Shown: positions 38,371-45,508 of the stretch, one piece after another | Layout of the letters: the number at the start of each line of letters is the position of its first letter | How positions within the stretch are numbered: position 1 is the first letter of the stretch | Assembly: GCF_014773225.1 (NCBI RefSeq) | Contig: NZ_JACXAJ010000008.1 | Coordinates: 1 to 64,000, forward strand | DNA: 64,000 bases | Direction of reading: 5' to 3' | Origin: Pontibacter aquaedesilientis | GTDB lineage: Bacteria > Bacteroidota > Bacteroidia > Cytophagales > Hymenobacteraceae | The notes under the pieces: model-generated | Databases searched by the model: none | Seen by the model: the letters and a program-made list of their open reading frames with translations, nothing else | Told to the model about the DNA's origin: nothing | Position numbers and translations under genes: made by a program

Positions 38371-38499
38371 GATGTCAACTTAAAGAGAGTTGGATCGAAT
38401 CAGGAGCTAAGATTTGCTATTTCAAGCGATTAGTATGAATTTGAAACTGAATATGGCGGAGGTCGCATATTCTTGGTAATAATCAGAAATACAATTGAG

Positions 38500-38910
38500 A
38501 TGTCCAAAAAGAATTTGACCTGGCAAGCTGCCGACGAACAGTTGCTGGAGGCACTGTTGCTGGCGACAGGCGGCGAAGGTGGTGCCTCTCTGCAGGATGT
38601 GTTGCTCATGGGCGACGCACTGGATGGCACTGTGCTAACGCTGCAGGAAATAGAACAGGCGCTGGAGAAACTGGTGTCGGTGGGTTTTGTCCTGATCCAG
38701 AAGAACAAGCTGTCTTTATCGGAAAGTTTTCTGAAAGCCTACGAGGCTATCACCTTAATCTCAGGTGCCGAGGAGTTGCAGAAACCCTTGCAGAAACTAC
38801 TGGAGCAGCAGGAGATAAGCGAAGAAGGTATAGCGAGGGCAAAAACTGAAACGCTGAAGAAATTCAAACTCAAAGCCTACTACCAGCAATACCTGGAGCA
38901 GTTTGGTTGA
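38500..38910 (+). CDS. hypothetical protein, 136 aa
   Basis: ATG at 38500 gives a helical, acidic 136-residue protein: WQAADEQLLEALLLATGGEG, then LQEIEQALEKLVSVGFVLIQ, SESFLKAYEAITLISGAEEL and a basic C-terminus (KKFKLKAYYQQYLEQFG). The pattern HxxEALxxLxxxGFV resembles a winged-helix regulator core (repeat helices with a hydrophobic wing FVLIQKNKLSLS), but I cannot assign a family. It is flanked on the right by a pair of inverted repeats and a terminator. Confidence 0.6.
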   Translation: MSKKNLTWQAADEQLLEALLLATGGEGGASLQDVLLMGDALDGTVLTLQEIEQALEKLVSVGFVLIQKNKLSLSESFLKAYEAITLISGAEELQKPLQKLLEQQEISEEGIARAKTETLKKFKLKAYYQQYLEQFG

Positions 38911-38930
38911 TTTTAAATTTGAAGATGTGG

Positions 38931-39110
38931 AGATTTGAAAATTTGGAGATGAAAAAATGTATGAATCTTCAAATTCGACCTTTAACTAAAGTTGCAAGGG
39001 GCTAAGGTATGGATCCAATAAAAAGAGCCGCTGAAATCACTCAGCGGCTCTTCTGTTTTATCAGGTATAGAGACATCTTCAAATCTCCACATCTCCAAAT
39101 TTTCAAATCT
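38931..39110. repeat. 21-bp inverted repeats around the serS terminator
   Basis: A 21-bp word (positions 38931-38951, GAAAATTTGGAGATG at its right end) recurs as its exact reverse complement at 39090-39110, ending at the serS stop codon. Related words (GATGTGGAGATTTGAA) overlap each copy. The terminator lies between them. Such AT-rich ATTTGAAAATTTGGAGA repeats occur as intergenic families in Bacteroidota. Confidence 0.75.
39024..39051. terminator. two-way terminator between hypothetical gene and serS
   Basis: AGAGCCGCTGA (39024-39034) pairs perfectly with TCAGCGGCTCT (39041-39051). A4 precedes and a T-rich stretch follows, so both strands can be terminated. Confidence 0.85.
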
Positions 39111-42474: not shown

Positions 42475-42503
42475 GGTTATACCTGGCTCTATATAAAGAC
42501 CGG

Positions 42504-42540
42504 CCCCATTGCTGCAAAGCAAAGGGGGCGCTTTTTTTTT
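42504..42540 (+). terminator. rho gene terminator
   Basis: GCCCC plus ATTGCT pairs with AGCAAA plus GGGGGC (one A-A mismatch) around GCAA, followed by a run of nine T. Confidence 0.8.
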
Positions 42541-42563
42541 ATTTGAACTGATTGAGCGAAATA

Positions 42564-43033
42564 GTGAATGAGTGATTGAGTGTTTCTTATTTATTCATAG
42601 ATTTTCGTGCTTTGGCCATGATGGATAAGACTTCTATGAACTCCTTTTTCAAGTCTTGAACAGTACCTGTAGCGGTGGTCCCAGATTCTTCCAGAAGTTC
42701 AAGCCAGAAAAGACTTTCATCGGCTTCCTCTATCACGATACAAAGTTTAGCATAAAACTCTGCGGATGACCTGGCTCTGCAGGCCGCTCTGTAGTTGGCG
42801 GCAACCGATGTGGCGGAGCGTAGCAGTTGTCGCTTCATAATAATTGCCTCTTCCACTTTTGGCAATTGCTTGCTAAACTTGATTACATCCAATGCAAGCT
42901 GCTTGGTACGCTGCCTGAAAAGCTCGGCAAACTGTTCTTTGGGTAAACGTTCTCTATCCACATTACTTAAATTTGATTTACTGTGAAATCAAAAAGTAAT
43001 CTTTATAGTTCAATAATGTAATCACTCATTCAC
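42564..43033. repeat. 14-bp inverted repeats bracketing the four-helix-bundle gene
   Basis: GTGAATGAGTGATT (42564-42577) recurs as its perfect complement AATCACTCATTCAC (43020-43033). The right copy continues as a tandem array ACTCATTC repeated three times. The two copies sit just outside the gene at 42587-42961, with AT-rich flanks. Confidence 0.85.
42587..42961 (-). CDS. four-helix-bundle protein (S23/IVS-like)
   Basis: The 124-residue protein starts with GTG (an overlapping ATG is out of frame). It has the S23-like four-helix pattern: IIMKRQLLRSATSVAANYRA near residue 40, then RSSAEFYAKLCIVIEEADES and FWLELLEESG, ending in a helix IEVLSIMAKARKS. Relatives are encoded in intervening sequences of 23S rRNA genes and as free-standing chromosomal genes of unknown role in Bacteroidota. 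Here it lies between terminator and a membrane protein gene and is bracketed by the inverted repeats at 42564 and 43020, as if the whole cassette moved as a unit. Confidence 0.88.
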   Translation of the reverse strand: MDRERLPKEQFAELFRQRTKQLALDVIKFSKQLPKVEEAIIMKRQLLRSATSVAANYRAACRARSSAEFYAKLCIVIEEADESLFWLELLEESGTTATGTVQDLKKEFIEVLSIMAKARKSMNK

Positions 43034-43057
43034 TCATTCACTCATCCAAAATTTAAC

Positions 43058-44505: not shown

Positions 44506-44515
44506 GGTTATAGTT

Positions 44516-44695
44516 GCTTAATTGTTAAACTGTTTAATTGTTGGTTGATAGGATTTTTGTAATAAGTTATTCGGATAGTTATTGCAGCTTCTTTTTTCAG
44601 ATGAATAGCCATGGCTAAGGGATAGCGCAAAGCCATCAACTTATCAGTTAAGCCAACCAATAATTCAACCATTTAACCATGCAACCATTAAACCA
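44516..44695. repeat. AT-rich intergenic repeats between UbiA and SAM-protein genes
   Basis: The gap contains repeated words of the AATTGTTAAAC / TTTAATTGTTGG / ATTTAACCATGCAACC type, related to those at 23291-23347 and about 31620-31710. They seem to form a family, with no coding potential. Confidence 0.5.
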
Positions 44696-45508
44696 TCAAT
44701 CAGGATACCCCACCAGATAAATAACCCGCTTCCCCAAACCCTTGCCAACGATGCCGCTACGCCAGGTATAGCCGGGCGGTGTTTGCACTTTTGCCACCAG
44801 TTGGTCGAGCATGCGCGGGTTGTACAACCGGAAGAGCGACACAAACCCATCCCACATAATGCCCAATGGAATGACAGGTATAAGATACGTGAAAAACAGC
44901 CGGTTTAGTTTGAACGGCCGGATAAAAGGCGTAACAGCCAGAATGATGAAAGGGAAAGTGAGCAGAAAGATGAGCAGTTCGCCCCAGGTTTTGCCGCCTC
45001 CCTCCAGTATGCCAATGGGGACACGCTGATTGGCGGCATCCTGCAGTATGGCCACCGCCTGGTTTGGCCTGAAATGGTGAAAAGAGGAAAACATGGTTCG
45101 CAGGCCCGTAATTTGTGGCGGTACCTTGGTGGCGTCGACAGGTGAGGCAATAAAACCGATCAGGCCACCGGATTGCTTTTGCAGGAACCTGTAGGCAGCC
45201 ATGTTGGGATACAGGTCGGAAAGGGATACTCGCACAGGTTCACCCATGCGCTGGCTCAGGTCCTGGCGTATCCCCTCTATGCCACCGCCTGCGCCCGAGC
45301 AAAGGTCTGTGAAATGCATCTGACCGCTGCGTCGCAGCATTTCCTCCAGCAAAGGTATGGCAGCATGGTAAACCCTAAGCTTCGAGATCATGAATCGCAG
45401 GAAGTCTAGCATGCCCTGCCGGAAAATGTGCGGGAACCAAGGCTGGTCTTCCAGTTCGAAAAGGTGCAGGCGAATGTTCAAAGGCAGCTGGGAATGTACC
45501 ATCCGCAT
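44696..45508 (-). CDS. SAM-binding-like protein with membrane hairpin
   Basis: The 270-residue protein starts with a methyltransferase-like core: motif I FTDLCSGAGGGIEGI (near residue 65), the acidic motif II VSLSDLYPN, and a later TMFSSFHHFRPNQAVAILQD motif, then GILEGGGKTWGE. The second half holds two or three hydrophobic segments (LLIFLLTFPFIILAVTPFI, FFTYLIPVIPLGIMWDGFV). This is a class I SAM methyltransferase-like protein with an added membrane anchor; methylation of a lipid-linked substrate is a reasonable guess only. It neighbours UbiA and an exported YCII protein. Confidence 0.6.
   Translation of the reverse strand: MRMVHSQLPLNIRLHLFELEDQPWFPHIFRQGMLDFLRFMISKLRVYHAAIPLLEEMLRRSGQMHFTDLCSGAGGGIEGIRQDLSQRMGEPVRVSLSDLYPNMAAYRFLQKQSGGLIGFIASPVDATKVPPQITGLRTMFSSFHHFRPNQAVAILQDAANQRVPIGILEGGGKTWGELLIFLLTFPFIILAVTPFIRPFKLNRLFFTYLIPVIPLGIMWDGFVSLFRLYNPRMLDQLVAKVQTPPGYTWRSGIVGKGLGKRVIYLVGYPD

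What the first reader, a model, noticed from the sequence alone, without database searches (positions are those of the whole stretch)
42564..43033. Four-helix-bundle gene framed by 14-bp inverted repeats: possible small mobile cassette
The S23-like gene at 42587-42961 lies between GTGAATGAGTGATT (42564-42577) and its perfect complement (43020-43033), with a tandem ACTCATTC array on one side. S23-like proteins are best known from rRNA intervening sequences, which also move. No transposase is inside, so the unit may be mobilised in trans or by an unknown route.
Basis: partly seen in the sequence, partly recalled or inferred. Interest (0 to 1): 0.55.

Follow-up and report, generated by a model that had tools for sequence, protein, structure and literature searches.

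The report
Transposase-less mobile S23 repeat unit
A tiny gene for a probably ring-forming protein sits between two mirrored stretches of short repeated DNA words, and such gene-plus-repeat packages are found, and in some plasmids are present or cleanly absent, between genes of many bacteria, which may explain several families of unexplained bacterial repeats.

Summary
In detail: an S23/IVP gene (42587-42961, minus strand) lies between perfect 14-bp inverted repeats (0 of 500 shuffles), which are parts of two inward-reading arrays of 8-nt words.

It is not a one-off. By one flank score, S23 genes are framed in 86 of 95 loci of this genus and order, 65 of 78 from other genomes and 24 of 25 cyanobacterial loci; displaced controls give 1 of 189, 6 of 288 and 2 of 50. 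Word length, 7 or 8 nt, goes with the S23 protein clade and word sequence with the subclade. Genomes with the cognate S23 hold many more copies of a word.

Such packages come and go as blocks: in named Nostocales plasmids four gene junctions hold one while relatives have the genes 0-13 bp apart. The gap beside rho varies between species.

Best explanation: a transposase-less mobile unit whose S23 ring recognises its own arrays, about five words per arm for a five-subunit ring. Presence and absence as blocks is shown for sister units. Recognition, ring reading and the moving step are inferred.

The parts
42553..42585 (+). left (rho-side) array of 8-nt words, reading inward (GTGAATGAGTGATTGAGTG)
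   Evidence: inverted repeats I1/I2; 8-nt period usual in its S23 clade
42587..42961 (-). S23/IVP four-helix-bundle gene, 124 aa, GTG start
   Evidence: PF05635, TIGR02436; four helices, pLDDT 89.5; fold of 2rld and 2gsc; dN/dS 0.07 and 0.04 against the G016 and G010 copies, with dS 0.8 and 1.8, so rough
42972..42993 (-). leader hairpin TTTGATTT-ACTGTG-AAATCAAA just upstream of the S23 start
   Evidence: read by eye; similar leader in the G010, G015 and G016 copies and in the gene-less remnant of G005; function not tested
43020..43044 (-). right array of 8-nt words, reading inward on the minus strand (GAATGAGTGAATGAGTGATT)
   Evidence: inverted repeats I1/I2
42498..42541 (+). terminator-like hairpin after the rho ORF, outside the frame (boundary of the unit)
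   Evidence: read by eye; a hairpin at this place is also in framed and unframed relatives printed
38909..39109 (.). gene-free frame of another word family (TTTGAAGATGTGGAG), filling the gap between ORF 38473-38910 and the serS ORF and bracketing a terminator-like hairpin
44506..44695 (.). gene-free frame of a third word family (TTAATTGTTAAACTGTTTAATTG) filling the gap between the UbiA gene and ORF 44696-45508; arms overlap the gene ends by a few bases

Best explanation
The feature is one copy of a small mobile unit made of an S23/IVP gene between two inverted arrays of about five 7- or 8-nt words. SHOWN for sister units: units are present or cleanly absent as blocks at gene junctions in close relatives; word length and sequence go with the S23 protein clade; copies of a word are many in genomes with the cognate S23 and few without. 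SHOWN for this copy: the gap next to rho varies among species, the unit occurs in two orientations, and the intact copies compared look conserved at the protein level. INFERRED: S23, a pentamer in its solved relatives, binds its own arrays sequence-specifically, probably as a single strand with one word per subunit. INFERRED: by pairing the two ends or protecting the hairpin it lets the unit and its gene-free derivatives spread, with cutting and joining supplied by the host. rRNA intervening sequences would be this unit sitting in 23S rRNA.
For: Framing (score 14 or more): 86 of 95 (1 of 189 displaced, 2 of 285 shuffled), 8 of 8 genus loci fetched later (no controls), 65 of 78 (6 of 288, 7 of 234), 24 of 25 (2 of 50, 1 of 75); other ORFs of 100-220 aa 5 of 204 against S23 ORFs 6 of 7 in the same regions. 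Period: best lag 7 or 8 in 155 of 158 and 119 of 124 arms. By clade, over arms: 8-nt 40 of 42 and 14 of 14; 7-nt 38 of 38, 20 of 20, 23 of 24, 10 of 10; one clade split 4/4, one single locus with lag 10. Median 4.4-4.9 words per arm; the solved S23 entries 2rld and 2gsc have 5 chains each. Polarity, G>C reading inward: 72 against 13 (1 tie) and 62 against 1 (2 ties) elements; 30 against 1 in a scan of 849 kb not based on S23 matches. Word follows protein in pairs without shared neighbours: 26 of 35 at 70% identity or more, 19 of 2791 below 50%; Mantel r 0.40, 0 of 2000 permutations. Trans link over 25 genus genomes: words A, C, E have median 43.5/43.5/53 hits with the cognate S23 and 3/4/7 without (P 0.00024, 0.00015, 0.00045 at 65% identity; at 60 and 70% P is 0.013 or less). 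Empty/filled junctions at four sites. dN/dS median 0.05 in 39 S23 pairs.
Against: No enzyme is encoded, and no uniform target duplication was found: GTAA plus extra bases at one site, TA or TTCTA at another (by eye). At plasmid site 1 the direction is unsettled: Nostoc C052 (90% identical) holds an array and the first part of the same S23 gene at that junction (88% over 134 columns), so the clean neighbours could be losses. Gene-free frames often bracket native sequence such as a terminator; of 21 interior pairs 1 is clearly alike, 6 more lie just above the best shuffled score. Of 18 gene-free word-A loci checked in this genome, 9 had an opposite arm by score 13 and 9 did not. 9 of 95, 13 of 78 and 1 of 25 S23 loci fall below the threshold; 7 of 31 frames have an arm overlapping a mechanical ORF. 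The word-to-S23 link is not corrected for phylogeny, counts hits and not units, and one of six cross-controls is positive (P 0.029). The published Nostoc PCC 7120 heptamers are rarely paired, and 83% of the Xanthomonas repeats keep their gene context between two species (passages). Two of the five rho copies have stop codons. For the window's own unit the compared species are only 73-79% identical over the region. Binding and the one-word-per-subunit idea are untested.
Confidence: 0.7

Rival explanations
1. S23 is a sequence-specific RNA-binding regulator and the arrays are its sites at gene ends; the S23 gene is framed because it regulates itself, and movement is incidental.
For: Outer array ends lie a median 3 bp from mechanical ORF ends, 36 of 48 within 15 bp. 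Earlier authors suggested a post-transcriptional regulator for TAACTGA heptamers and an unidentified global regulator for paired heptad sites in Geobacter. 83% of Xanthomonas heptamer repeats keep their gene context. S23 looks conserved.
Against: Frames appear, vanish and change word at the same gap between sister species. Whole units are present or absent inside operons. Selection against intragenic insertion alone could place ends next to genes. Functions of the framed genes were not surveyed.
Confidence: 0.2
2. The unit is moved in trans by a known enzyme, either a reverse transcriptase (S23 resembles Avd) or a Y1/RAYT transposase.
For: The model matches Avd of diversity-generating retroelements (4dwl Z 13.6, 8ub7/8ub8 Z 14.3). 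A paper reports PF05635 as the commonest Pfam around such retroelements and likens it to Avd (passages).
Against: RT (PF00078) is found in only 12 of 25 genus genomes and Y1_Tnp (PF01797) in 19 of 25. G015 and G016 have neither by these searches, yet have 44 and 56 word-A hits and two gaps each whose frame differs in word from the sister species (which side changed is unknown). Past presence is not excluded.
Confidence: 0.15
3. The arrays are ordinary short tandem repeats grown by replication slippage; S23 genes are passengers.
For: Array lengths vary, and arrays without a partner exist.
Against: Slippage predicts neither inverted pairing around one gene family, nor fixed inward polarity, nor a period set by the protein clade.
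Confidence: 0.04
4. Chance inverted repeats next to a fixed host gene.
For: The rho position is shared by five sister species.
Against: 0 of 500 shuffles; dispersed family; variable rho gap.
Confidence: 0.01

Closest known systems
23S rRNA intervening sequence (IVS) encoding S23, as in Coxiella burnetii (PMC4990558, passages read)
   Same: S23 ORF between terminal inverted repeats (28-bp stem), with two or three tandem GACAGAT heptamers just upstream of the ORF
   Different: The window unit lies between protein genes, has words in both arms and has gene-free relatives in the genome; whether the Coxiella words recur inverted at the other end was not read
Xanthomonas GGGAATC and Nostoc GGGGA(C/T)T heptamers (PMC4692102, passages read)
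   Same: Intergenic heptads; 70 and 75 convergent G-rich pairs in two Xanthomonas genomes
   Different: S23 is not mentioned (0 hits); studied as quadruplexes; few pairs in that Nostoc; mostly stable gene context
TAACTGA heptamers of Beggiatoaceae, cyanobacteria and Bacteroidetes (PMC4679880, abstract, passages and section 10 read)
   Same: Intergenic heptads, often next to start codons, patchy distribution, mechanism unknown
   Different: Direct repeats, one inverted set reported in the main genome; S23 not mentioned (0 hits). A link is only suggested
Geobacter paired heptanucleotide sites (PMC2700814, passages read)
   Same: Five tandem heptads per site, paired sites, assigned to an unidentified global regulator
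   Different: S23 not mentioned (0 hits); not tested here
Avd of diversity-generating retroelements
   Same: Similar fold by structure comparison
   Different: No RT hit on the window's contig
MITEs and REP/BIME elements (recalled)
   Same: Short, non-coding, inverted, intergenic, multi-copy forms
   Different: The gene-bearing form read here encodes S23 and no transposase; interiors are mostly not shared

Membership tests
S23/IVP protein family (PF05635, TIGR02436) | Profile match over the curated cut-off | tested here: met
   60 bits against 33.8; 82.3 against 24
S23/IVP protein family (PF05635, TIGR02436) | Four-helix bundle fold | tested here: met
   Helices 8-30, 37-61, 66-92, 98-122; 2rld Z 18.2, 2gsc Z 16.7
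S23/IVP protein family (PF05635, TIGR02436) | Pentameric ring | not testable with these tools
   Only a monomer model was made; the solved relatives have 5 chains per entry
rRNA intervening sequence | Lies inside a 23S rRNA gene | tested here: not met
rRNA intervening sequence | Terminal inverted repeats around an S23 ORF | tested here: met
rRNA intervening sequence | Excision from the transcript by RNase III | not testable with these tools
   Needs RNA work
MITE | Related full element with a transposase and the same ends | tested here: inconclusive
   The framed forms read encode only S23; not every copy was read
MITE | Copies share interior sequence | tested here: not met
   1 of 21 interior pairs of word-A frames clearly alike, 6 slightly above the best shuffled score
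REP/RAYT | A Y1 transposase in the genome | tested here: inconclusive
   PF01797 in 19 of 25 genus genomes, the window genome included; 6 have none, among them frame-bearing G009, G015 and G016
Diversity-generating retroelement | RT partner beside the Avd-like gene | tested here: not met
   The window genome has 2 RT hits, on contigs C6 and C3, none on C17
Diversity-generating retroelement | Avd fold of the accessory protein | tested here: inconclusive
   8ub8/8ub7 Z 14.3, 4dwl Z 13.6, only 1 to 2 above unrelated helical bundles at 12.6; Foldseek E 0.017 for 4dwl

The most novel reading that the evidence does not exclude
A previously undescribed class of mobile element that carries no enzyme: a pentameric ring protein and two arrays of 7- or 8-nt words read one word per subunit, so that the period is set by the protein. 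It would seed bacterial genomes in trans with gene-free word arrays at gene junctions, and would be the common source of rRNA intervening sequences and of the cyanobacterial, Xanthomonas and other heptamer repeats.
Probability: 0.4. Interest if true: 0.95.

Novelty: new variant of a known kind. Interest (0 to 1): 0.85.

Why it matters
S23/IVP proteins have had solved structures since 2006-2007 (release dates) and were described as having no known function (PMC4990558, passage). Heptamer repeats in bacterial gaps have been reported without an accepted explanation (passages). Linking them gives the protein a probable target and the repeats a probable partner, predicts the target word of an S23 from its own flanks, and raises the question of how a unit with no enzyme of its own moves. 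It also suggests that rRNA intervening sequences are one landing place of a much more common unit.

Tried and rejected
Fixed host gene: rejected by the variable rho gap. Simple MITE copying: weakened, as interiors are mostly unshared and frames bracket native terminators. An RT or Y1 transposase required in the same genome: not supported. A uniform target duplication: looked for by eye at the plasmid sites and not found. Clean events near home: the G010/G015 insertion (279 bp against 0) and the G009/G016 replacements are frames without S23. The Anabaena 90 cas6/cas4 site was not clean, since the relative has other sequence there. L344 (a second Brasilonema plasmid) was fetched but not used, because its downstream gene is not annotated. 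Absence of other families from the structure list means nothing. Paper search hits that I saw only as listings include PMC5524665 and PMC9769881.

Limits of the counts: the 95 loci are 87 of the genus's 95 S23 hits and 8 from other genera; the 8 remaining genus loci were scored. L047 lacked full flanks but was counted. Two loci near contig ends and four cut loci were left out. At least five of the 30 loci repeat loci. L200 holds 2 kb of L131, so that one locus was counted in both sets; its title suggests that the genus is Pontibacter. Protein extraction took a wrong frame for L002 at least; redid it with a profile. Words for searches were chosen after seeing the frames. 7 of the 29 plasmid records were fetched for framing.

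Full report
WHAT IS THERE. The window gene 42587-42961(-) is an S23/IVP four-helix-bundle gene. It lies between inverted arms that are perfect over 14 bp and 88% alike over 25 bp; 0 of 500 shuffles gave a perfect 14-bp pair. Both arms are quasi-tandem 8-nt words. The word is dispersed in the genome: 42 hits against 0 for the reversed control, with 9 convergent and 0 divergent neighbours within 700 bp. Of 18 gene-free loci of this word that I checked, 9 had an opposite arm by score 13 or more and 9 did not. The window holds two more gene-free frames with other words, at 38909-39109 and 44506-44695.

EVERY S23 GENE OF THIS GENOME HAS ITS OWN WORD. The genome has six S23 genes. Read by eye, all six are framed, each by a different word; by score 5 of 6 reach 14 and L002 has 12.0.

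GENERALITY. I scored the best inverted alignment of the two flanks. Score 14 or more: 86 of 95 S23 loci of this genus and order, against 1 of 189 displaced and 2 of 285 shuffled controls; 8 of 8 further genus loci, without controls; 65 of 78 loci from other genomes, mostly Bacteroidota with some Ignavibacteria, Desulfobacterota and other MAGs, against 6 of 288 and 7 of 234 (2 more loci too near a contig end; one locus shared); 21 of 30 from six whole genomes, at least five of them the same loci; 24 of 25 cyanobacterial loci against 2 of 50 and 1 of 75 (4 cut loci left out); 7 of 7 S23 genes that I fetched from 29 plasmid records have scores of 20 or more, two of them nearly identical, without controls. 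Other ORFs of 100-220 aa in the same regions: 5 of 204, S23 ORFs 6 of 7.

REGULARITIES. (a) The best repeat lag is 7 or 8 in 155 of 158 and 119 of 124 arms. (b) The lag goes with the S23 clade: 8 in 40 of 42 and 14 of 14 arms of two clades; 7 in 38 of 38, 20 of 20, 23 of 24 and 10 of 10 arms of four others; one clade of four loci is split 4/4, and one single locus has lag 10. (c) The word sequence follows the subclade: Mantel r 0.58 for all pairs of 77 loci and 0.40 for pairs of 83 loci without shared neighbours, 0 of 2000 permutations in each. (d) Arms hold a median of 4.4-4.9 words; both solved S23 entries have five chains. (e) The strand reading inward is C-poor: G>C in 72 against 13 and 62 against 1 elements, and 30 against 1 in a scan of 849 kb that was not based on S23 matches, although 5 of its 41 stretches were centred on S23 genes. 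(f) In that scan 24 of 31 frames had both arms outside ORFs of 110 aa or more, and their outer ends lie a median of 3 bp from an ORF end (mechanical ORF calls).

A TRANS LINK. Over 25 genomes of the genus, hits of three words were counted and compared with the presence of the cognate S23 at 65% identity or more. Medians 43.5 against 3, 43.5 against 4 and 53 against 7; P 0.00024, 0.00015 and 0.00045. At 60 and 70% identity P is 0.013 or less. Five of six cross-controls are not significant, one is (P 0.029). Hits are not units, and relatedness of the genomes was not corrected for.

THE RHO GAP. The neighbour gene was found in 16 of 25 genomes. G000 and G016 hold the S23 gene in one orientation and G015 and G010 in the other, within the same kind of frame; G009 has a framed copy at a contig end. 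The G015 and G009 copies have a stop inside. G005 has an arm and leader remnant; G011 has, by eye, a gene-free frame with another word; G004 and G002 have gaps of about 100 bp; G003 has no frame; G001, G006, G008, G013 and G014 have long gaps with other repeats; G012 was not resolved. Over the region these species are 73-79% identical to the window, so insertion of this copy is inferred.

CLOSE PAIRS. In 100-125 kb of G009/G016 (90% identical) and G010/G015 (87%), frames compared in the sister species were: G009 5 frames (2 other word, 1 no frame, 2 unmapped), G016 4 (1 same, 2 other, 1 unmapped), G010 8 (4 same, 2 other, 2 no frame), G015 6 (4 same, 2 other). By eye one gap has three different words and one absence in the four species.

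EMPTY AND FILLED JUNCTIONS in named Nostocales plasmids. Site 1: Trichormus ATCC 29413 and Scytonema NIES-4073 hold the unit between two genes that are 13 bp apart in Aulosira NIES-50, Nostoc linckia, N. carneum and Tolypothrix PCC 7601 (97-98% identical); three more distant plasmids have gaps of 6, 24 and 39 bp without the unit; but Nostoc C052 (90% identical) holds an array and the first part of the same S23 gene there (88% over 134 columns), so gain against loss is not settled. Site 2: pNsp_a and pC052_D hold a related unit at a junction that is 3 bp wide in the four other plasmids fetched (91-96% identical). Site 3: pNsp_c alone holds a different unit, with another word, at the next junction of the same operon, which is 0-3 bp wide in the five others; gain is the simpler reading. 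Site 4: two nearly identical Calothrix brevissima regions hold a unit at a junction that is 3 bp wide in the three relatives fetched (about 90% identical). Similarity between the units of sites 1 and 2 is confined to the unit. Short flank duplications are seen but are not uniform.

HOW IT MAY WORK. The S23 model has four helices (pLDDT 89.5) and matches 2rld and 2gsc, then Avd of diversity-generating retroelements; helical bundles score high in general, so the Avd match by itself is modest. PMC10053308 (passages) also relates PF05635 to Avd. A ring of five that reads one word of 7 or 8 nt per subunit on one C-poor strand would explain why arms are tandem, why there are about five words, why the period depends on the protein and why the polarity is fixed. 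That is an inference. The step that cuts and joins is unknown. Neither an RT (12 of 25 genomes) nor a Y1 transposase (19 of 25) was found in all genomes with frames.

RELATION TO WHAT IS KNOWN. The Coxiella IVS has S23, a 28-bp terminal stem and two or three tandem heptamers just before the S23 start (PMC4990558, passages). Xanthomonas has 70 and 75 convergent pairs of GGGAATC heptamers in two genomes, mostly in stable gene contexts, while the related Nostoc repeats are rarely paired (PMC4692102, passages). XCC0516 of Xanthomonas is the S23 of 2gsc; whether it is framed was not tested. Geobacter (PMC2700814, passages) and Beggiatoaceae (PMC4679880, abstract, passages and section 10) have further unexplained heptads; a link to S23 there is only suggested. 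I found no paper that links S23 with such arrays in the ten searches that ran (open-licence papers only; listings and the passages named).

VERDICT. Mobility of such units: about 0.9. Recognition of its own arrays by S23: about 0.75. One word per ring subunit: about 0.4.

Noticed in passing
38909-39109: A gene-free frame whose arms abut both flanking ORFs and bracket a terminator-like hairpin that is also in unframed relatives; in G010 both arms have another word.
   Followed up: partly
44506-44695: A gene-free frame in a gap that is 9-45 bp wide in several relatives and holds other words in others.
   Followed up: partly
G009 and G016, joined pieces g9 and g16r, about 108574 and 111212: Two species 90% identical overall hold frames with different words between the same stop and start codons: replacement in place.
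   Followed up: partly
L333 (Anabaena 90 plasmid), 1495-1863: An S23 unit sits between cas6 and cas4 of a type I-D CRISPR operon; Pseudanabaena galeata also lists a four helix bundle protein beside these genes.
   Followed up: partly
L011 and L012 (own genome, C11 about 114.2 and 115.9 kb): The only pair of word-A frames with clearly similar interiors lies 1.7 kb apart, perhaps a local copy.
   Followed up: no
g9/g16r comparison: Several extra pieces of 0.9-1.4 kb in G009, some with their own terminal inverted repeats, perhaps insertion sequences.
   Followed up: no
G002 genome: Fourteen reverse transcriptase hits, several with the same score and lying in pairs.
   Followed up: no
L042, L044, L089, L123 and others: Fourteen elements (13 and 1) have words richer in C than in G; several belong to the same S23 subclades.
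   Followed up: no
L200 and L131: Two kb of L131 (unnamed G018) lie letter for letter inside L200, titled Pontibacter, so the genus of the window is probably Pontibacter.
   Followed up: partly
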